Shown: positions 1 to 14,885 of the stretch, piece after piece
Layout of the letters: each line of letters starts with the position of its first letter
Numbering within the stretch: position 1 is the first letter of the stretch
Assembly: GCF_900292015.1 (NCBI RefSeq)
Contig: NZ_LR130759.1
Span: forward strand, 5,208,001 to 5,272,000
From: Mycobacterium basiliense
Lineage (GTDB): Bacteria > Actinomycetota > Actinomycetes > Mycobacteriales > Mycobacteriaceae
Direction of reading: 5' to 3'
Length of the DNA stretch: 64,000 nucleotides
Notes under the pieces: generated by a model
Databases searched by the model: none
What the model was told of the DNA's origin: nothing
The model's input: the letters and a program-made list of their open reading frames with translations, nothing else
Made by a program: the position numbers and the translations under genes

Positions 1-298
1 CGACGGCTATCAGCTGGTGATGGCCGGCCACACCCATGGTGGACAACTGTGCCTGCCGATTTATGGTGCCCTGGTCACCAATTGCGGGCTGGATCGCTCC
101 CGGGCCAAGGGCGCATCCCGGTGGGGCGCAAACACGCAACTGCATGTCTCTGCCGGGATAGGCACTTCACCGTTTGCCCCGGCGCGATTCTGCTGCCGAC
201 CCGAGGCCACTCTGCTCACGTTGATCGCCACCCCAATGGGCGGCCGAGACTCGAGTAGCAACCTGGGCCGTTCCCAGCCGACCGCCTCCGTGCGTTGA
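1..298 (+). CDS. Metallophosphoesterase, C-terminal end (partial)
   Basis: This is the 3' end of a gene that enters from upstream; the reading frame begins at base 2. It carries the motif GHTHGGQ near residues 10-16 of the visible part. That is the last metal-binding signature (GH-x-H) of the calcineurin-like metallophosphoesterase superfamily, in which the two histidines bind one of the two active-site metals. The visible tail ends with a low-complexity Ser-rich stretch and TGA at 296-298. By position it matches M. tuberculosis Rv3683. The substrate cannot be told from this fragment. The next gene starts inside its stop codon region, so the two are probably cotranscribed. Confidence 0.85.
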
Positions 299-1443
299 GC
301 GCGCGGACCCGTGTCGCGGGCCGCAGCCTGTCCCGAACCTGGACAGACAATGCGGTCCGCCTGATCGAGGCGGATGCGCGCCGCAGCGCCGACACCCACT
401 TGCTGCGTTACCCCCTGCCATCGGCGTGGTGTAACGATGCCAAGGTCGACCTGTACCTCAAGGACGAGACGACGCACATCACCGGCAGCCTCAAACACCG
501 GCTGGCGCGCTCGCTGTTCCTGTATGCGCTGTGTAACGGCTGGATCGGCGAGGGCACGACCGTGGTGGAGGCGTCATCGGGTTCCACCGCCGTGTCCGAG
601 GCGTACTTTGCGGCCCTGCTGGGGCTGCCGTTCGTCGCGGTGATGCCGGCCGCCACCAGCACCTCCAAGATCGCGCTGATCGAGGCGCAAGGCGGGCGTT
701 GCCATTTCGTGGAGAGCTCGAGTCAGGTCTACGCCGAAGCCGAACGGGTCGCGAACGAGACCGGCGGCCACTACCTGGATCAGTTCACCAATGCAGAACG
801 GGCCACCGACTGGCGCGGCAACAACAACATCGCCGAGTCGATCTACGTCCAAATGCGCGAGGAGAAGCACCCCATTCCAGACTGGATCGTGGTGGGGGCG
901 GGAACTGGCGGCACCAGCGCCACGATCGGGCGCTACATCCGCTACCGACGACACGCAACCCGGCTGTGCGTTGTCGACCCGGAGAATTCCGCGTTCTATC
1001 CCGCCTACGCCGACGCCAAATACGACATCGTCATGCCCAAATCGTCGCGGATCGAAGGCATCGGTCGGCCACGGGTCGAGCCGTCTTTTCTGCCCGGCGT
1101 GGTGGACCGCATGGTCTCGGTCCCCGACGCCGCCTCGATCGCCGCCGCCCGTCATGTCAGTACCGTTCTCGGACGGCGCGTGGGGCCGTCCACGGGCACC
1201 AACCTGTGGGGAGCTTTCGGTCTGCTGGCCGAGATGGTCGCAGAAGGCCGCAGCGGCTCGGTGGTCACCCTGCTCGCCGACAGTGGCGACCGCTACGCCG
1301 ACACCTACTTCAACGACGACTGGGTGAGCGCCCAGGGGATCGATCCGACCGGTCCCGCCCAGGCGCTGGTTGAGTTCGAACGCTCCTGCACTTGGGACGA
1401 TCCCCAACCTGCGGTTTGGCGAGCGGACCGACCGGTGCGATAG
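295..1443 (+). CDS. cds1: PLP-dependent L-cysteine desulfhydrase Cds1 (cysteine synthase family)
   Basis: Fold type II PLP enzyme of the cysteine synthase/cystathionine beta-synthase family, 382 residues from a TTG that overlaps the preceding stop (TTGA). The PLP lysine is in TGSLKHR (K67 in this numbering), the substrate-binding loop is SSGSTAV (about 95-101), and the glycine-rich phosphate-binding loop is GAGTGGT (about 202-208). By synteny it is Rv3684, which has been reported in M. tuberculosis as Cds1, releasing H2S, ammonia and pyruvate from cysteine and affecting respiration. The TTG start is only the longest option; a later start would still keep K67. A tRNA follows 17 bases downstream. 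Confidence 0.88.
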
Positions 1444-1460
1444 GCTGTCGTGGCTTCAAG

Positions 1461-1537
<77 letters not shown>

Positions 1538-1550
1538 GTGGATGTCGCAG

Positions 1551-1802
1551 CTAGATGACATGCCAGTGGGTCAGCACGAATAGCACCGAAACCCAACCGG
1601 CGGAGATGACCAGGCCGGCGATCGCCTCGCCGCGGCCGTCATCGGATGTCCTGGATTGAGCCAGCGCGGCGATGGCGCAGATGACACTCAGGACCACCGC
1701 GCCGACCATGCCGAAGGCCAGCGCGGCCGCGGCATAGACGTTCGTGCAACGGGCCGGCGCTGCCTGCGCAGCGGCCCCGGGCTGGTACGAGGTGGCGGCC
1801 AT
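1551..1802 (-). CDS. Small DUF4190-like membrane protein
   Basis: An 83-residue protein starting MAATSYQPG, with a Pro/Ala-rich N-terminus and two hydrophobic segments (about residues 22-47 and 62-80) separated by a short polar stretch ([11 protein letters not shown]). This layout, with [10 protein letters not shown] between the segments, is typical of DUF4190-type two-helix membrane proteins. The ATG at 1800-1802 is chosen because AAGGGA lies about nine bases upstream; another in-frame ATG at 1820 has no Shine-Dalgarno sequence. It lies convergent with the tRNA and downstream of cyp137. Function is unknown. Confidence 0.7.
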
Positions 1803-1872
1803 ATCGGCAGTTCCCTTCATGGTGGACGGTCCGGTCACTGCGATGAGGATCGGAGTAGGCCCTTTGAAGGTT

Positions 1873-3243
1873 CTAAAAGGATTCTTGAAGTCGGGGCCGA
1901 AACCGCACTCGGGTGCCGTGGCGGGGGGCCAGCATGATGGAACGCCGCACGATGCGTTCCGGACTTTCCTCGACGGCGCTGAACTCACCCTCGCGTAACA
2001 GCACGTGCAATACGGTGACCAGCTCCCGCATCGAAAAGGCCGCGCCCAGGCAACGTTTGACGCCCCCTCCGAACGGAACCCAGGCATAGGTTTGGGGGCG
2101 AGCGCCCAGGAACCGCTCGGGACGGAACGCATTGGGATGCTGGTAGATCGCCGGGTTGCGGTTAATGGCGATGATGTGGACGACGATTCGGGTTCCCGCG
2201 TCGACCAGGTAGCCGCCAATTGGGAACGGTTGCGCGGCGACACGGGCGGTAAATGGCGCGGGGGGCCGGACCCGCAACGTCTCGTTGATCACCGCCGTGG
2301 TGAAGGCTTCCGCCCCCACCGCGGCCTCCTGCTGCACCCGCCGCAGCGCATCGGGGTGATGCAGCAACAAGTCGAAGGCCCAGGCCAGCGTGGTTGCGGT
2401 GGTTTCATGCCCCGCCAGTATCAACGTGATCAGATCATCGCGAATCTCGTTATCCGACAACCGTTCACCGTTGTCGCCCCGCCCTTGCAGGAGCAACGCG
2501 AGAATGTCGCGTTGCTCGCCCAGGCACGGGTCGTTGCGCCGGAGCGCAATCAGCGGCATCACCACGTCGTTGATCGCCTTGTTGGCCCGCGCCCGTTGTG
2601 GCCATACCCGCAACGCGCCCGCCCGGCGCAACGCATACCGGACGGTCAATTGCTCGGAAACGCCGAGGTTCAGTAGACGTTCGAAAGGTCGACCCAGTTG
2701 CCGCACCTCGTCGGGATCTTCGACACCAAAGATGACCTTGACGATCACGTCCAACATCAGTGCCCGCGCCGCCTGCAGTAATTCGAACGGACGGTCCACG
2801 GGCCAACCGCGCATGGCCGCGCGGGTGGACTCCTCGATCACCGGCACATAACCGCTGAGTGCTGGGCCGTGCAAGGGCGGTGTGAGTAATTTGCGTCGCC
2901 GAAGATGCTCCGGCTCCTCTTGGACGAACATCGATCCGGATCCGTAGATCGCCGCCGCGGGTCCCACCCCCTCCCCACCGAGCAGTACGTCAACCGGTGC
3001 GGTGAAAACCTCCTTTGCCAGTGCGGGGTCGGAAACGATTGCGACATCACCCAAACTGAGGATCGGCATGGTCATGATCGGCCCATAACGTCGGATCAAC
3101 CGCAGCATTCGCCGCTCGCCACCCACCAGATAGCCAAGCGCGTACGCCGCGGCAAAGGCCGTGCGGAGCCGGCGGGGGGCGGGTAGGCCGGGAGGTCGGC
3201 CCCCGCTGTGCCGTGCGCGTGCCGAAGGCTCGGATACAGCCAC
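1873..3243 (-). CDS. cyp137: Cytochrome P450 CYP137
   Basis: A 456-residue cytochrome P450. The visible signatures are the I-helix AGHETT (277-282, oxygen activation), the ExxR pair in ETLR (E321/R324), and the haem-thiolate loop FGGGVKRCLG with the axial cysteine at residue 398. The length and the hydrophobic N-terminus resemble the CYP135/137/138 group of mycobacteria. Gene order places it as Rv3685c (cyp137). The start is GTG at 3241-3243. The substrate of CYP137 is unknown; family members oxidise hydrophobic substrates with electrons from ferredoxin or reductase partners. No ferredoxin gene is adjacent. Confidence 0.93.
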   Translation of the reverse strand: MAVSEPSARARHSGGRPPGLPAPRRLRTAFAAAYALGYLVGGERRMLRLIRRYGPIMTMPILSLGDVAIVSDPALAKEVFTAPVDVLLGGEGVGPAAAIYGSGSMFVQEEPEHLRRRKLLTPPLHGPALSGYVPVIEESTRAAMRGWPVDRPFELLQAARALMLDVIVKVIFGVEDPDEVRQLGRPFERLLNLGVSEQLTVRYALRRAGALRVWPQRARANKAINDVVMPLIALRRNDPCLGEQRDILALLLQGRGDNGERLSDNEIRDDLITLILAGHETTATTLAWAFDLLLHHPDALRRVQQEAAVGAEAFTTAVINETLRVRPPAPFTARVAAQPFPIGGYLVDAGTRIVVHIIAINRNPAIYQHPNAFRPERFLGARPQTYAWVPFGGGVKRCLGAAFSMRELVTVLHVLLREGEFSAVEESPERIVRRSIMLAPRHGTRVRFRPRLQESF

Positions 3244-3979: not shown

Positions 3980-4207
3980 GCGCACTCCCGATATCGATTG
4001 CGGACCGCCACGATCTGGCACTGGCCAGCCGACCTCACACGCGCGCATACCCGCACGTCCTTACCTCAAACCTGTATACATTCGCAACCGGCGTGGCGCC
4101 TACCAAGTTGCTGTGAAATCGCTACTGACCTGCGTCCTGCTGTCACTGCTCCCAACATCGCTTGCGGATCCGCGGTTGTCGGCCACCGGGTGGGGTATTA
4201 CTCGTCA

Positions 4208-4747
4208 ATGAGCGATACCGCGCTGCTGGTCATCGACATGTTCAATGACTATCGACACCCCGATGCTGAACAGCTTGCGACCAACGTCGCCGCCATCATC
4301 GATCCGCTGGTCTCCCTGATCGGCAACGCCGAACACCACGGAGGCGTGGATCTCATCTACGTCAACGACAACCGCGGCGACTTCACCGCCGATCATCATG
4401 CGATCATTTCAGCGGCGCTGGACGGCGAACGTCCCGACTTGGTCCGGCCGCTGATCCCTAAATCCGGCTGCCCGACAATCACCAAGGTCCGCCACAGCGT
4501 TTTCTATTCCACCGCACTGGAGTACCTGCTGCATCGCTTGAACACGCGGCGCGTCATACTGACCGGCCAAGTCACCGAGCAATGCATTCTGTACAGCGCA
4601 CTCGACGGCTACATCCGCCACTATGACGTGATAGTTCCCCCCGATGCGGTTGCCCACATCGACAACGAATTGGGTGCCGCGGCACTAAAGATGATGCAGC
4701 GCAACATGCGCGCCGAGCTGTTGGCCGCGAATCGCTGTCTGCTGTGA
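4208..4747 (+). CDS. Isochorismatase-family cysteine hydrolase
   Basis: A 179-residue alpha/beta hydrolase of the isochorismatase/nicotinamidase superfamily. The catalytic triad is visible: D10 in LLVIDMFND, K93 in TITKVRHSVF and the nucleophile C126 in VTEQCILYS. The oxyanion cis-peptide lies just before the cysteine (TGQVTEQ). Length is typical for a single-domain member. The family cleaves amide or ether bonds of small molecules such as nicotinamide or N-carbamoyl compounds; the substrate here cannot be assigned. There is no clear Shine-Dalgarno sequence before the ATG. The gene faces the phosphoesterase gene at 4770 tail to tail. Confidence 0.9.
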   Translation: MSDTALLVIDMFNDYRHPDAEQLATNVAAIIDPLVSLIGNAEHHGGVDLIYVNDNRGDFTADHHAIISAALDGERPDLVRPLIPKSGCPTITKVRHSVFYSTALEYLLHRLNTRRVILTGQVTEQCILYSALDGYIRHYDVIVPPDAVAHIDNELGAAALKMMQRNMRAELLAANRCLL

Positions 4748-4769: not shown

Positions 4770-5534
4770 CTAGACGCGATCTAGGTCGACGACGAGCGCC
4801 CTGTGATCGGAGATCGGCTGCCGCTCGGCGACCGCAGCCTGGGCACAAAGACCGTCGTCGTCGGTCACGATGTGGTCGAGTTGCCGGTCGGGGATCGAGG
4901 CCGGAAATGTTGCCGCCGTCGCCAACGGCCGCATCCGTGTGTAGCGATGTACGGCACCCGGGGTGAGGTTGAGGTCCCCGGTGAGCAACCGCGGTCCGGG
5001 CAGGGCGCGCAGATCGTGAATCAGCCGCCGCAACTGCCACCGGTTCCATCCGGGCACAAACGATAGGTGGGTATTAGCCACCGTCATCCAACCCAACGGG
5101 GTGTCCAACCGCGCAATGACCGCCGCCCGTGGCTCCTCGTCGATCATCTTCACCTTGTTGGGCCCAGGCAAATACATCGGAAACCGAGCCCGGATTCGAG
5201 GCAACCGCACCACCTGCCAGCTGGCAGCCCAGTAGCGGGACAGCAGCGCAATGCCATAGGCCGCCGTCCCGGGTTGTTCCCGGCCGGTAACGGCCATCCA
5301 GGTCGCTCCCGGTGTCCCCGAAATCGCGGCGACGAACCGGTGGTCCACCGCGCTCATCGCCTCGGCAGCGGCAGCGGTGAGATCGGCATTGCCGGAACGA
5401 GGTTGGTCGACGTCGACTTCCTGCAGCGCCAGCACGTCGGGGTCGAGCCGTCGCACACTGTCGCGCAGCCGCCGCAGATCCACCCCGTCGTCGACGGTGC
5501 GGCCGTGCAGAATGTTGAACGTCGCCACCCGCAC
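4770..5534 (-). CDS. Endonuclease/exonuclease/phosphatase (EEP) family phosphoesterase
   Basis: A 254-residue EEP-fold protein, the last gene of the five-gene minus-strand operon. Motifs in order: TFNIL (residue 5), LQEVD with the metal-binding Glu (about 38-41), LSRY, NTHLS (about 154-158), GDLNL (about 181-185, Asp/Asn pair) and SDHRAL with the catalytic His near the C-terminus. The fold covers DNA-repair nucleases, inositol-polyphosphate phosphatases and sphingomyelinases. There is no signal peptide. The GTG start lies two bases after the stop of the methyltransferase gene, so translation is probably coupled. Context argues for a phosphodiesterase acting on the product of the pathway rather than on DNA, but this is inference. 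Confidence 0.88.
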   Translation of the reverse strand: MRVATFNILHGRTVDDGVDLRRLRDSVRRLDPDVLALQEVDVDQPRSGNADLTAAAAEAMSAVDHRFVAAISGTPGATWMAVTGREQPGTAAYGIALLSRYWAASWQVVRLPRIRARFPMYLPGPNKVKMIDEEPRAAVIARLDTPLGWMTVANTHLSFVPGWNRWQLRRLIHDLRALPGPRLLTGDLNLTPGAVHRYTRMRPLATAATFPASIPDRQLDHIVTDDDGLCAQAAVAERQPISDHRALVVDLDRV

Positions 5535-5536
5535 GG

Positions 5537-6166
5537 CTAGTCCTGCGCCCCGGGCACCCGCTCGCGGGCCGCCACGGACCGAGCGGCACCCGTGTCGAAC
5601 ACTTCCACGATCACGTCACTGTCGCGGTAGCGACCGAGCGATTTCAGGCCGGGTGTGGCGGCGATGATCGCGTGGGCCACATCCCCGGTCAGCGGATAGT
5701 CGGCCACCCGGTGGCGCCAGTGCGCGGCGAGGACGGCGGCACCGGCGGGCAGTCGAGCGCATTCCCGCCGCAGCACCATGGCCAGCGCGTCGGCCGTCAA
5801 GTAGTAGGCGATCTCACTGAGCACGAGCAGATCGAACGGACCGGCCGGCCAGGCATCGTCCAGCGACGCGCACAGCAGTGTCACCCGCTCCCGGCAGCTG
5901 GCGTGCCGAAGCCGCGCGTCGGCCGTTCGGAGGGCGGCGTCAGCCACGTCTATCGCGGTGACGTGATCGCAGCGCAGCGCCAGCAGCTCGGTCAATGCGC
6001 CGATGGAGCATCCGGGTTCGAACGCATGGCGATACCGCCGATCGGGCAGCAGGGCCAGGGTGATCGCGTACTTGCGTTGGTCATACCACCGTGACGAGAG
6101 CAACCACGGATCCTCAGCATGGGCATACATTCGATCAAAATACGCATCAGGCAGCCGCGTGGTCAT
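5537..6166 (-). CDS. NodS-like SAM-dependent methyltransferase
   Basis: A 209-residue class I methyltransferase. The N-terminal pattern FDRMYAHAEDPW...RWYDQRKYAITLALLP followed by FEPGCSIGALT (SAM motif I) is that of the NodS family, whose founding member N-methylates the deacetylated end of rhizobial chitooligosaccharides. The motif II acidic residue is in VTAIDVAD and the post-motif is LSEIAYYL. The ATG at 6164-6166 overlaps the stop of the upstream PIG-L gene (ATGA). A longer reading frame exists but would run into that gene. The likely substrate is an amino group exposed by the neighbouring deacetylase (inference). Confidence 0.9.
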   Translation of the reverse strand: MTTRLPDAYFDRMYAHAEDPWLLSSRWYDQRKYAITLALLPDRRYRHAFEPGCSIGALTELLALRCDHVTAIDVADAALRTADARLRHASCRERVTLLCASLDDAWPAGPFDLLVLSEIAYYLTADALAMVLRRECARLPAGAAVLAAHWRHRVADYPLTGDVAHAIIAATPGLKSLGRYRDSDVIVEVFDTGAARSVAARERVPGAQD

Positions 6167-6882
6167 CGAAAGACCATCTCCCCCACCGCGATCAGCCGAT
6201 CCAGCACGAACGCCGGCAGCACCGGCCCGGCACCCTCCGCCGGTTCGAACTGGCTGCCGAAGCAGCGTGCGGCCTCCCGCTTGCGCGCAATCGCCCAGCG
6301 GGACAAAGCTATCGAGAAGCCATCGCTCCACGGAACCACCGGCTCCGCGGGAATCGCCCAGTGCCACATCCATACCGGATACTCCAGCAGCACGACACCC
6401 GTGCGTCGGCAGGCCCGGTCGGCGGCGCGTCCCACCGCTTCATGGTCGGGATGCCCGTCACCACGCCAGGTCGCCGCGCACCATGTCCCGGGTCCGACAT
6501 TCTCGAGCAACCGCGTAAGCCGATCGGTAAGCCGATGCTCGTGCTCGGCCAGTTGCCCGTCGGGCAGACTCAACGAAATGATCGACGAGACTCCCAGGAT
6601 AGCGGCGGCCCTGCGCAGTTCCCGTCGACGCACCGCTTCCAGACGGATTCGCGCCGGCGCGGGCGCGCCGGGGCGGGCGGCACCGCCGTCACTCGCCGAG
6701 ACCAGCTGAACATCGATACCCGATGCGGACAGTTGCGCGATGGTGGCGCCCAGGCCCAGCGTCTCGTCGTCCGGGTGGGGTGCCACCACGACGAGCCTCG
6801 TGCACTCCCCCAGATCCAGCGTCGGCAGCGTCTCGGCCGACAGCCACTCCCGCATCGATGTTCCGCCGTCGACCAACGGCAT
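6163..6882 (-). CDS. PIG-L (LmbE) family zinc deacetylase
   Basis: A 239-residue member of the PIG-L/LmbE family. The zinc and catalytic signature APHPDDE is at residues 34-40, and the third zinc ligand is in GDGHPDHEA. Relatives are MshB (GlcNAc-Ins deacetylase), Mca (mycothiol amidase) and eukaryotic GlcNAc-PI deacetylase, all of which remove N-acyl groups from sugars. The start is uncertain: ATG at 6882 is used here, a TTG at 6924 would overlap the acyl-CoA dehydrogenase gene, and a third ATG lies at 6855. The gene is sandwiched between the acyl-CoA-dehydrogenase-like and methyltransferase genes, with ATGA overlap to the latter. Confidence 0.9.
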   Translation of the reverse strand: MPLVDGGTSMREWLSAETLPTLDLGECTRLVVVAPHPDDETLGLGATIAQLSASGIDVQLVSASDGGAARPGAPAPARIRLEAVRRRELRRAAAILGVSSIISLSLPDGQLAEHEHRLTDRLTRLLENVGPGTWCAATWRGDGHPDHEAVGRAADRACRRTGVVLLEYPVWMWHWAIPAEPVVPWSDGFSIALSRWAIARKREAARCFGSQFEPAEGAGPVLPAFVLDRLIAVGEMVFR

Positions 6883-6901
6883 GGCCGCGAGCCGAGCAGC
6901 A

Positions 6902-7876
6902 TTAGTAGGCGGTGGGGGTCTCAACGTGTCCTCGTCCCGGCCGCCCGGCTAGACGTCCGAGTTCAGCTAGGTCCCGCTCGGCGTGGCTTTGCCGGATATA
7001 GATGGTGAGATCGGCCACCCGCTGGGCGTGGCGGCCATCTTGGCACAGTGGGCCCGGCCCCAGGGCCCGGCCAGTCCGGGTGATGGCCTCGTCGACGGCA
7101 TGTTCGACGATGGCGCGGGTCCGCCGGGCCAACAACTGGGCGGTGCCGGCACGATCGAATGGATCGCAGTCGATTTGCTCTGCGGCTCTGGCCAGCATCG
7201 CGTCACCGGCGGCAAGCGCGGCATCCACGGCGCCCAGGTGGGCCAACGCATACGCGTCGGCGGACTGACTGCCGGCACACCGATAGAGCGGGTCGGCAAC
7301 GCGACGCGCACCGCCCAGCCAGCATGCGGCCACCCCGATGGCGCCATGCCAGAACCCGGGTCGGTCCAGATAAGCGTCGGGCTCGCCCACTGCGACCGCG
7401 TGCACATTGGTGAACTGCACCGACCGTGTGTCGCTACCGGCCATCCCCGGGTTCCACCACGTGCTGGGCAAGGGTTTGACGGCGGGATCGGTGACCGTTA
7501 CCGCGAACAAGCCCCGTTTGCCCTCCTCGACATGCGCGGTAACCAGCGCATTGGTGCAGAAGCCGGCGCCCGAGCACCACACCTTGGTGCCCGTGAGAAG
7601 GAACTCGTCCCCGGCGATATGACCCGCTGTCAGAGTCGTGTCCGCCGCTTCGGCGGCCCATACCCCCCACAATTGACCGGGCTGCGGCGGCTTTCCGCCC
7701 AGCTCGTTGAGTATTGCGCATGCATCGGCGTGGGCTTCGGCGATGCGGGCCGCCGCGATGTCCTCCTCGGCCAGGTGCACTAGCTGGTGCCAGCGATCCC
7801 CCGTGCGCCCCGATGCCGGCAGCGGCAACTCCAGCCGCCCCGATTCCAGCCAGTGCTGAACCAACCCGGCCGTCAC
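6902..7876 (-). CDS. Acyl-CoA dehydrogenase-like flavoprotein (short form)
   Basis: A 324-residue protein with the core of the acyl-CoA dehydrogenase fold: a beta-domain with LTGTKVWCSGAG (about 94-105, flavin contact) and FTNVHA, then a helical C-terminal domain. It is shorter than the usual 380-400 residues and lacks most of the N-terminal helical domain. It may act on a carrier- or sugar-bound acyl chain, or have lost dehydrogenation. The GTG start overlaps the glycosyltransferase stop (GTGA). It lies between the glycosyltransferase and deacetylase genes in the same operon. The catalytic base could not be placed with certainty by eye. Confidence 0.85.
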   Translation of the reverse strand: MTAGLVQHWLESGRLELPLPASGRTGDRWHQLVHLAEEDIAAARIAEAHADACAILNELGGKPPQPGQLWGVWAAEAADTTLTAGHIAGDEFLLTGTKVWCSGAGFCTNALVTAHVEEGKRGLFAVTVTDPAVKPLPSTWWNPGMAGSDTRSVQFTNVHAVAVGEPDAYLDRPGFWHGAIGVAACWLGGARRVADPLYRCAGSQSADAYALAHLGAVDAALAAGDAMLARAAEQIDCDPFDRAGTAQLLARRTRAIVEHAVDEAITRTGRALGPGPLCQDGRHAQRVADLTIYIRQSHAERDLAELGRLAGRPGRGHVETPTAY

Positions 7877-8586
7877 GCGACGTCTCCCGATCTGCTGGCA
7901 AGTCGGCGCAGGTGATCGGCGAACCCGCGCGGCGCCCGGCCGCGAGCGCGAGCCGACGTGACGACCGACAGCCTCGGGTCGCGATGAATGCGGTAGCCGG
8001 CACGTTCGAATCGCGCAACCAAGTCGACGTCCTCGCCGGTGGGTAGCGCGCGAAAGCCTCCGACCCGCCAGTATGCATGGGCGCTGAAACCCATGTTGGC
8101 ACCGTGAATATGGTCGTGCTCACCGTCGCCACGCGTGTCGTATGCCCGCAGGTAGCGGAGTACCACGTGCGGCGGGCGCCGCCGCCAATCGACCACCCGA
8201 ACCACGCCCAGCGTCATGTCGGCGCCGGCGGCCAGTTGCCGGGCCAGCCAGTCGGGGTCCACCCGGCTGTCAGCATCGGTGGTGGCATACCAGATCTTGT
8301 CCACGCCCCCACACAACGAGCTGGCGTAGTTGAATCCGGCCGCACGCGCCGCGCCGACATTGCGCGCCTCGACGCAAACAAAGTGCACATCGGAGCCGTA
8401 CCTCCCGGCCAACTGCGCACTGCCGTCCGCACTCGCGTCGAGCACCACCACGATGTGCACCGGAATCTGGACACACAGCGCGGCGGTGACGACGCAGCGC
8501 AGGCAGGACGGCAAGTGCGCCTGCTCGTTGTGGGCGGGAATCACCACGGCAGCCCGATGATAACTACGCGGCGCTGCTGCTGACAT
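7873..8586 (-). CDS. Family 2 glycosyltransferase
   Basis: A 237-residue GT-A fold glycosyltransferase, first gene of the operon. It shows VVIPAHNEQAHL at 14-25, the substrate loop RNVGAARAAGF, the metal/nucleotide DxD in TTDADSRVD (D104, D106) and an acceptor-side GEDVDL motif near residue 190. No membrane helices are present, so it is probably cytosolic or peripheral. It is followed without a gap by the acyl-CoA-dehydrogenase-like, PIG-L, NodS-like and EEP genes. Together they suggest transfer of an N-acetylated sugar that is then deacetylated and methylated. Donor and acceptor are unknown. Confidence 0.92.
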   Translation of the reverse strand: MSAAAPRSYHRAAVVIPAHNEQAHLPSCLRCVVTAALCVQIPVHIVVVLDASADGSAQLAGRYGSDVHFVCVEARNVGAARAAGFNYASSLCGGVDKIWYATTDADSRVDPDWLARQLAAGADMTLGVVRVVDWRRRPPHVVLRYLRAYDTRGDGEHDHIHGANMGFSAHAYWRVGGFRALPTGEDVDLVARFERAGYRIHRDPRLSVVTSARARGRAPRGFADHLRRLASRSGDVA

Positions 8587-8708: not shown

Positions 8709-9311
8709 ATGACTGTGCCGCCAAACCCGAGTTTCAGCGTGGCCACGGGCACCGGCAATAGGGACGACGCCCACCGCCGACAACTGCGCGAAGCGCTGCG
8801 TTGTGCCGCCTCGGCTCTCAAGGAGCACGGTCCGCGTTTCGCCCTTGCCGGTAGCTACGCGTTGTGGGCGTACGGCGCCCCAGAACCTACCCATGACGTC
8901 GACATCGTGGTTGCCGAAGCGGACGCGCCGGCCGCCGCGACAACGCTCGCCAAGGCCGGATTCGGTATCGAACATCCACCAGAGGATTGGCTGTTTAAGG
9001 CACACAATGGCGCTGCCGTGGTCGATGTGCTGCACCGGCTCAACGGGGTGCCCGTAGCGCCGGATATTATGGACACCGCGAAAGATCTTGTCGTGTTGGC
9101 CATTACGATGCCAGTCCTGCGGCCTACCAACGTATTCATCCAGAAACTACGCGCCCTTGACGAACGCAACTGCAATTTCGCGACGCTGCTGCCCGCCGCC
9201 CGCGCCATCCGCGAGCAGTTGGATTGGGACCACATCGAGGCACAGACCTCCGGTAACGATTTTGCGGCCGCGTTTCTGACGCTGGCCAAGCGGCTACGCC
9301 TGCCCGCCTAG
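8709..9311 (+). CDS. Nucleotidyltransferase-fold protein (AbiEii/MNT-like)
   Basis: A 200-residue protein with the minimal nucleotidyltransferase signature: AGSYALWAYG (about 47-56) followed by HDVDIVV, where the two Asp residues are the metal ligands of the pol-beta fold. It resembles the single-gene DUF6036/AbiEii-type proteins. No HEPN or AbiEi partner lies beside it, so a toxin role is not supported by context. The start lies in a short direct repeat: CTATGACTGTGC occurs twice 19 bases apart (around 8690 and 8707), and each copy contains an ATG. The second is in frame. Confidence 0.75.
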   Translation: MTVPPNPSFSVATGTGNRDDAHRRQLREALRCAASALKEHGPRFALAGSYALWAYGAPEPTHDVDIVVAEADAPAAATTLAKAGFGIEHPPEDWLFKAHNGAAVVDVLHRLNGVPVAPDIMDTAKDLVVLAITMPVLRPTNVFIQKLRALDERNCNFATLLPAARAIREQLDWDHIEAQTSGNDFAAAFLTLAKRLRLPA

Positions 9312-11410: not shown

Positions 11411-12052
11411 CTATTTGCTCCCCTCCCGCGCGGTACGCAGCAGTTTGGCCACGGTGTCCGCCGCGTCGTTGAGCAGCGCATCACGTGCGCCCGGATCACC
11501 GGTAACGCGCTCCGCGAGCAGCCGCAACTTAGTATTGGATTCCTGAGACCATTTCGCCAGCAGTTGGAATGCGGAGTCGGCGTCTAGCCGGTACTCGTGC
11601 ATCAGCACGCCGATGGCCTGATTGATCAAGGCACGTCGGGAATTGACCGCCGCCACGGATTCAGTCAGTCGCTTTTGTACGTCTGATTCGAATTGCTCGG
11701 TGATGTCGACGTAGAACCCGGCAGTGCCGGCCAGCGCACCTTTGCCATCGTAGAGCGGGTTTGCAACGACAACCACAACGTGCGTGTCGCCATGGGTATC
11801 GATGATTCGAAGCTGATTGCTGCACGCCATCCCGTAGCGGCAGACGCGCTCCACCATCTCGGCTACCACGGCCTTGTCGTCGGGATGCTTGTGCGCGATC
11901 AGTAGATCGGCGGTCGGCCGGACGCGACCCGGCTGATAGCCATAAATGCGGGCCAGCTCGTCCGACCATTCCCAGCGATCATCGCGCGAGATGTAGCGGA
12001 AGCGTCCCACCCGCGGCCACCGATTTCGTCGTAGCGACGAACCCTCAGGCAC
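11411..12052 (-). CDS. PAS-ANTAR antiterminator-type regulator
   Basis: A 213-residue protein. The N-terminal half is a PAS domain (WSDELARIYGYQPG; HPDDKAVV; GFYVDITEQFE). The C-terminal half is an ANTAR RNA-binding module beginning at RALINQAIGVLMHEY, with the conserved Ala/Ile/Gly pattern and hydrophobic periodicity. ANTAR proteins bind paired hairpins in nascent mRNA and prevent termination, usually when dimerised by a sensory domain. The start is a GTG at 12050-12052. No cognate two-hairpin target was recognised nearby. Several PAS-ANTAR paralogues exist in NTM genomes. Confidence 0.9.
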   Translation of the reverse strand: MPEGSSLRRNRWPRVGRFRYISRDDRWEWSDELARIYGYQPGRVRPTADLLIAHKHPDDKAVVAEMVERVCRYGMACSNQLRIIDTHGDTHVVVVVANPLYDGKGALAGTAGFYVDITEQFESDVQKRLTESVAAVNSRRALINQAIGVLMHEYRLDADSAFQLLAKWSQESNTKLRLLAERVTGDPGARDALLNDAADTVAKLLRTAREGSK

Positions 12053-12903: not shown

Positions 12904-13302
12904 TTAGCCGGACATGAACTCGTGGTAGGCCGCTTCCAGATTCGGCGGCAGCGCGGTCACCTGGCACTGCCGTTCGGTGTCACCGATCGGCGCCAGGATC
13001 CCGCGCAGGTCGTAGTACTCCTGGGGATGCGCGGTGAAGTAACCGCGAATGTTCGCCGCGGCCTCTCCGCGCGGCTGGCCGTAGGCGGCCGAAACCACCT
13101 GGCCGGCGCCCGGGTGTGCGGCAAGGTACTGTTGTGCCGCGCCGGTCACCGCCGAAACGGTGGCGTCGATACCCGCTGGACTACAGTCGGGCGTCGCCGC
13201 CGCCGAGGGTGCTACGACGACGCCGAGAACGATCCCCCCGAGCAGAAGCCCGACGCTAGCGCCGCCGACTCCTCGGCGCATGCCAATACTGCTGATTTTC
13301 AT
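12904..13302 (-). CDS. Secreted haemophore-type haem-binding protein
   Basis: A 132-residue protein with a classical signal peptide: MKISSIGMRRG, a hydrophobic core, and cleavage near APSAAA-TPDC. The mature part starts TPDCSPAGIDATVSAVTGAA, carries HPGAGQVVSAAYGQPR and YFTAHPQEYYDLRGI, and ends with a second Cys (RQCQVT). This pattern is that of the mycobacterial haemophore family (Rv0203-like), small helical proteins with one disulfide that bind haem outside the cytoplasm. The ATG at 13300-13302 has AAGGA about ten bases upstream. It lies head to tail after rsfB and ends at a strong hairpin. No MmpL3/11 partner is adjacent. Confidence 0.88.
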   Translation of the reverse strand: MKISSIGMRRGVGGASVGLLLGGIVLGVVVAPSAAATPDCSPAGIDATVSAVTGAAQQYLAAHPGAGQVVSAAYGQPRGEAAANIRGYFTAHPQEYYDLRGILAPIGDTERQCQVTALPPNLEAAYHEFMSG

Positions 13303-13463
13303 AGTGATGTGTTCCTTCAAACGAGCGAACAATTTGGGTCCCCGAATCCCTGAAACCCAACGTAGCCATTCAAAAGCAACCTGCCCACAACGTTCGCGCA
13401 TAACGAACATCCGCATCGCGGGCCAAACGGCGCGTACCCTACGCACCGTAGATCCGCTAGGAG

Positions 13464-13832
13464 CTAGCGGTTGAGTTCGCCGTCCCGCACGCCGGTCAAC
13501 GCGTCATCGAGGGTGGGATACAGCGGAAACGTTTTGTCCAGACCGGTCAGGTGAATCGGGCGCCTAGTCGCCGGGCCACGCGCGACCACCCCAAACCCCG
13601 CGTTGCCGCCGAGCGTCTCGTAGGTCGAAGCGAGGATCTTGAGCCCCACCGAACCGAGAAACTCCACCCCCGACAAATCGATGACTAACGCCGCCGGATT
13701 CTCGGCGAGCACCTCGCCGATGGCTTCTTCGAGGGCCGGAGCTGTGACCAAATCAATTTCGCCGCCGACACTGAGCACGGCAACCCCGTCGTGGTCGGTG
13801 ACCACAGCGGTGATCGAATCAGGAGCTGACAC
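13464..13832 (-). CDS. rsfB: Anti-anti-sigma factor RsfB
   Basis: A 122-residue single STAS domain. The phosphorylatable serine is S61 in VEFLGSVGLKIL, matching the S61 described for M. tuberculosis RsfB (Rv3687c), which binds the anti-sigma factor UsfX/RsbW when unphosphorylated and so frees SigF. The N-terminus MSAPDSITAVVTDHDGVAVL and the IDLVTAPALEEAI strand-helix are typical. GTG at 13830-13832 is preferred because AGGA is positioned correctly. The gene is divergent from the rsbR-led stressosome operon, so two layers of partner-switching control share one promoter region. Confidence 0.95.
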   Translation of the reverse strand: MSAPDSITAVVTDHDGVAVLSVGGEIDLVTAPALEEAIGEVLAENPAALVIDLSGVEFLGSVGLKILASTYETLGGNAGFGVVARGPATRRPIHLTGLDKTFPLYPTLDDALTGVRDGELNR

Positions 13833-13991
13833 TGGTGGTCCTTTGTCTGAGCCTTCGGTGTGCTGCAAGCCTAGCCTGCCTCGCTAACCGCGAGAAGGAG
13901 AAGACCTCAAAGCGTCACACGACGTCCCCCACGCTAGTCTCGCCATATGATCAGCGCCCCGCGGAGCGCGACGCGGCACTTGGGAGGCCAG

Positions 13992-14885
13992 ATGTCAGAT
14001 TCGCCGTCCGACCTGAGCAGCTCCAGCGTCATCGCAGCACCGGTGGGGGCATCGAGCGACGGTTTGCTGCCGCAGCTGGTCCAACATCTCCGACAGAATC
14101 GAACCGGTTTACGCGAGAAGTGGGCGCGCAGCATCACCGAGGCGCGGCTGCTCACCTCCATGACGCCCGAGGAGATCTTCTCCGAAGCGACCGCGGTATA
14201 TGACAACTACGTCGGTGTGCTCGAGACCGGAAGCGTCGAAGCGCTGCAGGCCTACGCGCAAGACCTGTCGGAACGCATCATTCCCCGGGGTGTGGAAACG
14301 GACGAGGTCGTCGGCATCGTCTTGTTGCTGCGCGACGTGCTGGCGCGCTCGCTGTTCGAGAAGTACCAGACCGACTTCAAGATGCTCAACCAGGTCCTCG
14401 ATGCCTACGAGCCGGCGGCCAACCGCATCGCCAATACCGTGGCTGTCAGCTTCGTCCAGGAGCGTGAGCGCGTCATCCGCCAGCAGCAGGAGGCAATCCG
14501 CGAACTTTCCACGCCGGTGCTGCAGGTGCGCGAGCAGTTGCTGATTCTGCCGATCATCGGGGTGTTAGACAGTCAACGCGCCCGGCAGGTCACCGAGCAG
14601 CTGTTACGAGCAATTCGGGCCAACCGGGCAAAGCTAGTGGTTATCGACGTCACCGGGGTACCCACTATCGATTCCACGGTGGCAAACCATCTGGTCCAGA
14701 CGGTGGACGCATCACGGTTGATGGGTGCCAGTGTGATCATCACCGGCCTGTCCTCCGACATTGCCTTGACACTGGTGACCATCGGCCTGGACCTGTCGAA
14801 GATGAATGCCGTCGGCGATTTGCAGGGCGGAATCGAGGAAGCCGAGCGTTTGCTGGGCTATGCCGTCACCCGCACCGGCGATTAG
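13992..14885 (+). CDS. rsbR: Stressosome sensor protein RsbR
   Basis: A 297-residue RsbR-type protein. The N-terminal helical sensor domain (about 20-165, RsbRD_N-like) has no haem or cofactor signature that I can recognise. A linker helix (QERERVIRQQQEAIRELSTPV) leads to a STAS domain from about 178. The phosphoacceptor is S228 in VPTIDSTVANHL, at the place of Thr171 in B. subtilis RsbR. The start at 13992 is supported by GGGAGG just upstream; an ATG at 13947 would add 15 residues. It is first gene of the rsbR-S-T-X-like operon. RsbR and RsbS are expected to form the stressosome core that sequesters RsbT. Confidence 0.93.
   Translation: MSDSPSDLSSSSVIAAPVGASSDGLLPQLVQHLRQNRTGLREKWARSITEARLLTSMTPEEIFSEATAVYDNYVGVLETGSVEALQAYAQDLSERIIPRGVETDEVVGIVLLLRDVLARSLFEKYQTDFKMLNQVLDAYEPAANRIANTVAVSFVQERERVIRQQQEAIRELSTPVLQVREQLLILPIIGVLDSQRARQVTEQLLRAIRANRAKLVVIDVTGVPTIDSTVANHLVQTVDASRLMGASVIITGLSSDIALTLVTIGLDLSKMNAVGDLQGGIEEAERLLGYAVTRTGD

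What the first reader, a model, noticed from the sequence alone, without database searches (positions are those of the whole stretch)
4770..8586. Five-gene operon resembling a Nod-factor-like sugar modification pathway (GT2, acyl-CoA-dehydrogenase-like, PIG-L, NodS-like, EEP)
Seen: five minus-strand genes with GTGA/ATGA overlaps or gaps of about 20 bases or less. They encode a GT2 glycosyltransferase (DxD at D104/D106), a shortened acyl-CoA dehydrogenase, a PIG-L deacetylase (HPDDE), a NodS-like N-methyltransferase and an EEP phosphoesterase. Known: NodC (GT2), NodB (deacetylase) and NodS (N-methyltransferase) act in sequence on chitooligosaccharides. Here NodB is replaced by the unrelated zinc deacetylase PIG-L. 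Inference: the operon makes or modifies an N-methylated, possibly N-acylated amino-sugar lipid, with the acyl-CoA-dehydrogenase-like protein tailoring the chain and EEP removing a phosphate. I do not associate this block with M. tuberculosis at this locus.
Basis: partly seen in the sequence, partly recalled or inferred. Interest (0 to 1): 0.7.

Follow-up and report, generated by a model that had tools for sequence, protein, structure and literature searches.

The report
Nod-like amino-sugar cassette shared widely
Four of the five genes form a set that recurs side by side in unrelated bacteria and is predicted to build a small N-methylated amino-sugar compound, somewhat as rhizobia make Nod factors; the fifth gene is a separate neighbour.

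Summary
The five minus-strand ORFs are real and tightly packed. Four (GT2, ACAD-fold protein, PIG-L, NodS-like methyltransferase) form a cassette that recurs in mycobacteria, Rhodococcus, Nocardia, Gordonia, Streptomyces, proteobacteria and Deinococcus. EEP is a neighbour: it occurs without the cassette, or far from it, in other genomes. In 13 of 13 Rubrobacter-like loci a NodB-type polysaccharide deacetylase stands where PIG-L would, and one Sulfitobacter protein fuses GT2, NodS-like and NodB-type domains; both support a glycosyl transfer, de-N-acetylation, N-methylation logic. The ACAD-fold protein has an invariant Gln (168 of 168 rows) where 11 of 25 ordinary ACADs of this genome have the catalytic Glu and none has Gln; the other 14 lack Glu there too, so this argues against beta-oxidation chemistry without excluding it. 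Against a simple pathway, mycobacteria repeatedly lost the methyltransferase and PIG-L while keeping the ACAD-fold gene under purifying selection. A few proteobacterial copies sit in or beside otsA/otsB trehalose loci (4 of 19 loci opened). Substrate unknown. Ten paper searches listed no paper on the cassette.

The parts
7873..8586 (-). GT2 glycosyltransferase, 237 aa, DxD D104/D106; first gene of the cassette
   Evidence: Pfam PF00535 52.0 bits; far below the NodC equivalog cut-off, 15.7 vs 550; linked in 11 of 11 non-mycobacterial Actinomycetota loci
6902..7876 (-). ACAD-fold protein, 324 aa, invariant Gln296 at the site of the MCAD-type catalytic Glu; predicted flavoprotein
   Evidence: AF2 model pLDDT 93.8; Foldseek/VIA matches to DszC, MsuC, nitrososynthase and ACADs; Gln296 in 168 of 168 rows; control with ordinary ACADs
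6163..6882 (-). PIG-L/LmbE-type zinc de-N-acetylase (metal use inferred from family); ATG start at 6882 taken here, TTG at 6924 also possible
   Evidence: PF02585 103.1 bits; PDB relatives include diacetylchitobiose deacetylases, BshB1, MshB and glycopeptide deacetylases
5537..6166 (-). NodS-like SAM methyltransferase, 209 aa
   Evidence: PF05401 52.4 bits; PDB 4isc E 1.3e-29, NodS 3ofj E 6.2e-9; below the NodS equivalog cut-off, 59 vs 300
4770..5534 (-). EEP-family protein: neighbour, judged NOT part of the cassette
   Evidence: PF03372 71.5 bits; found without the cassette in 4 genomes and far from it in 2; linked in 0 of 21 mycobacterial loci that I listed as fast-grower-type and in 40 of 46 listed as slow-grower-type

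Best explanation
The GT2, ACAD-fold, PIG-L and NodS-like genes form a conserved four-gene cassette that is predicted to make a small N-methylated amino-sugar glycoside: the GT2 would transfer an N-acetylhexosamine, PIG-L would remove the acetyl group, and the NodS-like enzyme would methylate the freed amine. The ACAD-fold protein is most likely a flavin-dependent oxidase or monooxygenase acting on the same or a precursor molecule, rather than a beta-oxidation enzyme. The product may serve in stress or osmotic protection, because a few copies lie in or beside trehalose operons. SHOWN: gene order and its recurrence across phyla; a NodB-type deacetylase in PIG-L's place in one group; invariant Gln at the MCAD-type Glu site; independence of EEP. 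INFERRED: substrate, order of steps, flavin use, physiological role.
For: (1) Recurrence: all four genes together in 11 of 11 non-mycobacterial Actinomycetota loci (those loci were found by their ACAD gene); ACAD, PIG-L and MT in one run of neighbouring genes in 15 of the 19 Pseudomonadota plasmid-collection loci that I opened for an ACAD match (scans in 69 and 104). (2) Genus screen of 148 genomes: ACAD in 84, MT in 61, both in 58; the 3 MT matches without ACAD are partial (G013 with an internal stop, G403, G426). (3) Deacetylase exchange: 13 of 13 Rubrobacter-like loci carry a NodB-type deacetylase (PF01522 92 bits for L144) beside ACAD and NodS-like MT. (4) Fusion: one Sulfitobacter protein with PF00535, PF05401 and PF01522. 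(5) Gln296 in 168 of 168 rows, redundant loci included, and in 0 of 25 ordinary ACADs of this genome, 11 of which have Glu there; Foldseek ranks DszC 1st and MsuC 5th. (6) Trehalose: two Comamonas species with otsA-ACAD-PIGL-MT-GT2-otsB; 16 Acinetobacter plasmid records with otsA 3.7-4.0 kb from ACAD; Legionella otsB and GH65.
Confidence: 0.47

Rival explanations
1. The ACAD-fold gene has its own function and PIG-L, MT and GT2 are optional decorators that add steps to its product; ACAD would act first, on a common metabolite.
For: Of 84 genus genomes with ACAD, 26 lack MT, while MT without ACAD is seen only as 3 partial genes. ACAD stays under purifying selection after PIG-L and MT loss, in sister pairs L063/L065 (dN/dS 0.043) and L076/L092 (0.176), each pair a starred clade. 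States ACAD+PIG-L and ACAD without both occur.
Against: Outside mycobacteria ACAD is rarely alone (one Methylobacterium locus among 19 Pseudomonadota loci). In some lineages the loss may be too recent for selection to have relaxed.
Confidence: 0.3
2. A Nod-factor-like N-acylated lipo-oligosaccharide pathway of five genes, with ACAD tailoring the chain and EEP removing phosphate.
For: GT2 + deacetylase + NodS-like set; the missing Glu does not by itself exclude dehydrogenase chemistry, since 14 of 25 ordinary ACADs lack it at that site.
Against: EEP is independent; invariant Gln in the ACAD-like protein; GT2 and MT score far below the NodC and NodS equivalog cut-offs; no acyltransferase hit among the five proteins.
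Confidence: 0.08
3. The ACAD-fold protein works as an amino-sugar N-oxygenase like KijD3, DnmZ or ORF36 nitrososynthase, giving an N-hydroxy or nitro sugar (a special case of the best explanation).
For: Nitrososynthase 3mxl, KijD3 and DnmZ are among the Foldseek hits (ranks 15, 28 and 46); 3mxl and DnmZ are also profile hits; the neighbours are amino-sugar enzymes; Rubrobacter adds a pyridine-nucleotide-dependent flavin oxidoreductase (PF07992).
Against: The best-ranked fold hits are S-oxygenating DszC and true ACADs rank among them at similar Z; no flavin reductase family among the five window proteins.
Confidence: 0.2

Closest known systems
nodBCS(A) Nod-factor biosynthesis of rhizobia
   Same: GT2, de-N-acetylase and NodS-type N-methyltransferase encoded together; in the tree the NodS clade lies on one side of a branch with cassette methyltransferases of most alphaproteobacteria sampled, Deinococcus, Legionella and Rubrobacter-like bacteria (93/96, not starred)
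   Different: PIG-L in place of NodB, except in the Rubrobacter-like group; small GT2 is not NodC; no NodA among the five genes; an ACAD-fold protein is added
ACAD-fold flavin monooxygenases (DszC, MsuC/SfnB, KijD3, DnmZ)
   Same: fold; best NCBIfam hit is SfnB
   Different: SfnB score is far below its cut-off (17 vs 430.9 bits); invariant Gln296 motif; shorter N-terminus
PIG-L deacetylases of mycothiol, bacillithiol and glycopeptide pathways (MshB, BshB, Dbv21)
   Same: PF02585 and HPDDE motif
   Different: well below MshB and BshB equivalog cut-offs; linked to ACAD and usually to a NodS-like MT
Trifunctional GT/MT/polysaccharide deacetylase of Sulfitobacter
   Same: GT2 + NodS-like + deacetylase logic
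   Different: one fused protein, NodB-type deacetylase, no ACAD gene annotated or matched within the 12.4 kb stretch viewed

Membership tests
Nod factor pathway (nodABCS) | NodC chitooligosaccharide synthase | tested here: not met
   GT2 vs TIGR04242: 15.7 bits, cut-off 550
Nod factor pathway (nodABCS) | NodB-type polysaccharide deacetylase (PF01522) | tested here: not met
   the window cassette has PF02585 only; met instead in Rubrobacter-like loci
Nod factor pathway (nodABCS) | NodS equivalog | tested here: not met
   59 bits vs cut-off 300; Pfam's NodS family itself is met, 52.4 vs 24
Nod factor pathway (nodABCS) | NodA N-acyltransferase | not tested
   none among the five proteins; the rest of the genome was not searched for it
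Acyl-CoA dehydrogenase | ACAD fold | tested here: met
Acyl-CoA dehydrogenase | catalytic Glu at the MCAD-type C-terminal site | tested here: not met
   Gln296 in 168 of 168 rows; 11 of 25 ordinary ACADs of this genome have Glu at that column, 0 have Gln, 14 have other residues; the single reference ACAD was shifted by one column
Acyl-CoA dehydrogenase | catalytic acid at an alternative (isovaleryl-type) site | not tested
Acyl-CoA dehydrogenase | Pfam middle-domain cut-off | tested here: not met
   PF02770 28.0 vs 33.3 bits
ACAD-fold flavin monooxygenase (SfnB/DszC/KijD3) | family profile score (SfnB) | tested here: not met
   SfnB 17.0 bits (window) and 45.3 (Bradyrhizobium L139) vs 430.9
ACAD-fold flavin monooxygenase (SfnB/DszC/KijD3) | fold closer to monooxygenases than to ACADs | tested here: inconclusive
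   DszC first in Foldseek, but VIA Z within 1 of true ACADs
ACAD-fold flavin monooxygenase (SfnB/DszC/KijD3) | reduced-flavin and O2 dependence | not testable with these tools
   needs purified protein
PIG-L/LmbE deacetylase | PF02585 with HPDDE/HPDH motifs | tested here: met
   103.1 vs 28.2 bits; motifs visible in the translation

The most novel reading that the evidence does not exclude
An undescribed, horizontally spread pathway for a stress-protective N-methylated and flavin-oxidised amino-sugar glycoside, possibly a trehalose relative, in which PIG-L and NodB-type deacetylases are interchangeable, and from whose methyltransferase family rhizobial NodS was recruited.
Probability: 0.18. 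Interest if true: 0.8.

Novelty: new variant of a known kind. Interest (0 to 1): 0.5.

Why it matters
A gene set shared by mycobacteria, streptomycetes, proteobacteria and Deinococcus, for which my searches found no assigned product, is a good target for finding a new class of bacterial glycoside. If the NodS link holds, it would show where one Nod-factor enzyme came from, and the PIG-L/NodB-type exchange would be a clean case of two unrelated deacetylases filling the same slot.

Tried and rejected
EEP as a fifth member: rejected. ACAD as a beta-oxidation enzyme: judged unlikely, not excluded; my first alignment control used three ordinary ACADs of which only one has Glu at the site, so I repeated it with 25 (Glu 11, Asp 3, Gln 0, other residues 11; 5 of the 30 fetched were dropped for length, 66 matches in the genome). 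Trehalose link as a general rule: rejected; no hits in the 11 non-mycobacterial actinobacterial loci. Catalase, Ku and ferritin neighbours in proteobacteria were noted but no background rate was measured. Conserved neighbours of 22 actinobacterial and one Cupriavidus-containing locus set, found with a crude ORF caller: the widest non-cassette cluster is SDR-type dehydrogenases in 11 of 22 loci at scattered distances, a very large family; GAF-ANTAR proteins in 4 and STAS proteins in 5. The N-terminal 397 residues of the Deinococcus L153 ACAD protein gave no PDB match. Paper searches listed no paper that appeared to describe the cassette, judged from titles and starts of abstracts; no paper was opened. 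That an E-to-Q change inactivates MCAD is recalled, comes from no call, and is not used as evidence. VIA ranking gave no decision between ACAD and monooxygenase; families not listed there are not excluded.
Full report
OBSERVATION. Five minus-strand ORFs lie at 4770-8586 as described. Gene junctions: GTGA overlap (GT2/ACAD), 19-base gap (ACAD/PIG-L if the ATG at 6882 is used), ATGA overlap (PIG-L/MT), 2-base gap (MT/EEP). Family calls are above Pfam cut-offs for four proteins; the ACAD-like one matches only the ACAD middle domain, below cut-off. The genome is 5.6 Mb in one contig; among named proteins in the listing, the best ACAD relatives are from M. simiae, M. pseudokansasii and M. asiaticum at 84-86%.

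THE CASSETTE OUTSIDE THE WINDOW. Because the loci were found with ACAD, this says nothing about ACAD's own frequency. In the plasmid collection I opened 19 Pseudomonadota loci with an ACAD match; in 15 ACAD, PIG-L and MT lie in one run of neighbouring genes (Acinetobacter, Comamonas, Pandoraea, Legionella, Bradyrhizobium, Sphingomonas, Novosphingobium, Jiella, Paracoccus, Limimaricola; in Legionella the order is PIG-L, MT, GT2, ACAD). The other four are three Cupriavidus loci (in L052 PIG-L is about 3 kb away on the other strand, in L146 and L180 none was matched within 9 kb) and one Methylobacterium locus with ACAD alone. Two Deinococcus loci have PIG-L next to a longer ACAD protein and a NodS-like MT; in L138 a helicase gene lies between, and only L153 has a glycosyltransferase next to the MT. 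Alphaproteobacterial copies use longer glycosyltransferases than the window's.

EEP. In 21 genomes searched EEP matched 16. Four of these (G011, G013, G014, G002; 69-74% identity) had no ACAD of this family, two (G012 65%, G050 53%) had both genes hundreds of kb apart, and G020 has ACAD and MT but no EEP match. Orthology at 53-65% is assumed. In one search EEP is within the locus in 40 of 46 loci of my slow-grower list and 0 of 21 of my fast-grower list. These lists are my own assignment by locus number, which follows the ACAD ranking; L114 and L125 were in neither; of the six slow-list loci without EEP (L077, L081, L083, L085, L097, L098) at least L077, L083, L097 and L098 are contigs under 10 kb that may end first. 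EEP is therefore best read as a neighbour.

DEACETYLASE EXCHANGE. In 13 Actinomycetota loci with a distant ACAD match (L036-L047 of family f32 and L049 of family f23; L037 has the Rubrobacter indicoceani plasmid sequence of L144), a polysaccharide deacetylase stands beside ACAD and the NodS-like MT in 13 of 13, with a pyridine-nucleotide flavin oxidoreductase in 12 of 13 (L040 has none in its stretch); no PIG-L match was printed in these short flanks (Pfam check of the L144 genes). Two unrelated deacetylases in one slot argue that the slot's job is de-N-acetylation. A Sulfitobacter protein that joins GT2, NodS and polysaccharide-deacetylase domains points the same way.

EROSION IN MYCOBACTERIA. 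In 148 genus genomes, ACAD was found in 84, MT in 61 and both in 58; the three MT-only genomes hold partial matches (Fisher p 8e-17, relatedness not corrected). In two of the 58 (G030, G404) the MT is a 34-38% match on another contig. On the ACAD tree of 63 mycobacterial loci the MT state needs at least 11 changes and PIG-L 7. Two sister pairs lacking both PIG-L and MT show ACAD dN/dS of 0.043 and 0.176, and three pairs of another such group (94/90, not starred; one member keeps GT2) 0.094-0.106; eight full-cassette pairs range from 0.047 to 0.246, one of them with the split L090 MT. PIG-L in seven MT-less pairs shows 0.13-0.26. This is the main result against a strictly linear pathway and supports the rival in which ACAD acts on its own or first.

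TREHALOSE AND STRESS CONTEXT. Comamonas endophytica and C. antarctica: otsA-ACAD-PIGL-MT-GT2-otsB (Pfam check of the C. endophytica genes). Sixteen small Acinetobacter plasmid records carry both ACAD (partial in one) and otsA 3.7-4.0 kb apart; they are near-copies (otsA 95-100% identical), so one event. One further record (CP068175) has an 18% ACAD fragment and is not among the 21 Acinetobacter otsA records; the three A. baumannii chromosome-sized records have otsA far away. OtsA matches occur in 361 of 72,556 plasmid records overall. Legionella lytica: otsB and GH65. That is 4 of 19 Pseudomonadota loci. Cupriavidus basilensis also has a gene annotated as a GlgE-type maltosyltransferase, whose visible part gave no Pfam match. 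Large catalases were annotated or matched in 6 of 19 loci and Ku in 2 of 19; no background was measured for these. The 11 non-mycobacterial actinobacterial loci show none of these. So a stress role is only a lead.

NodS. In a 43-row tree NodS (4 rows) is one clade (100/100) within a 19-row side of a branch (93/96, not starred) that also holds cassette MTs of six of eight alphaproteobacterial rows, Deinococcus, Legionella, Rubrobacter-like bacteria and the Sulfitobacter fusion; the two Sphingomonas rows fall elsewhere; NodS, Legionella and the outgroup have long branches and the root is a midpoint. NodS as an offshoot of the cassette MT family is possible, not shown.

VERDICT. A real, widely shared four-gene cassette that likely works like, but is not, a Nod pathway. 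Product unknown. Ten paper searches (listings and abstract starts only) did not bring up a description of it; most subscription papers are not in that library.

Noticed in passing
L090 11720-16324: The methyltransferase match of M. parascrofulaceum is in two pieces about 4 kb apart; G414 shows the same pattern. Described only.
   Followed up: no
L138 145-2484 and L153 5850-8213: Deinococcus ACAD proteins of about 780 aa carry roughly 400 N-terminal residues with no Pfam match; for L153 no PDB match either.
   Followed up: partly
window 13464-14885: Two STAS-domain proteins (PF01740), a domain I recall from stress-sigma regulation, lie about 5-6 kb from the cassette; STAS relatives lie within 10 kb of the cassette in L078, L115, L118, L120 and L121.
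   Followed up: partly
L126 8278-9045, L136 12385-13149, L120, L121; window 11411-12052: A GAF-ANTAR regulator (checked by Pfam for L120) lies directly beside the cassette in Rhodococcus and Gordonia and about 2-3 kb away in two mycobacteria; the window has a PAS-ANTAR protein about 3 kb off.
   Followed up: partly
L142, L149, L151, L152: Alphaproteobacterial copies sit with large catalases, extra glycosyltransferases and in some cases Crp/Fnr regulators, ferritin-like proteins or Ku.
   Followed up: partly
L147 16437-17249: In an A. baumannii record a predicted aph(3')-Ia resistance gene lies about 4.5 kb from the cassette's last gene.
   Followed up: no
window 8709-9311 and 4196-4747: Flanking plus-strand genes: a nucleotidyltransferase-like protein (PF09970 over its cut-off) and an isochorismatase-domain protein; look-alikes of both recur in L058, L078 and L099.
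   Followed up: no
window 295-3243 and 12904-13446: PALP-type PLP enzyme, cytochrome P450 and a haemophore-type haem-binding protein nearby.
   Followed up: no
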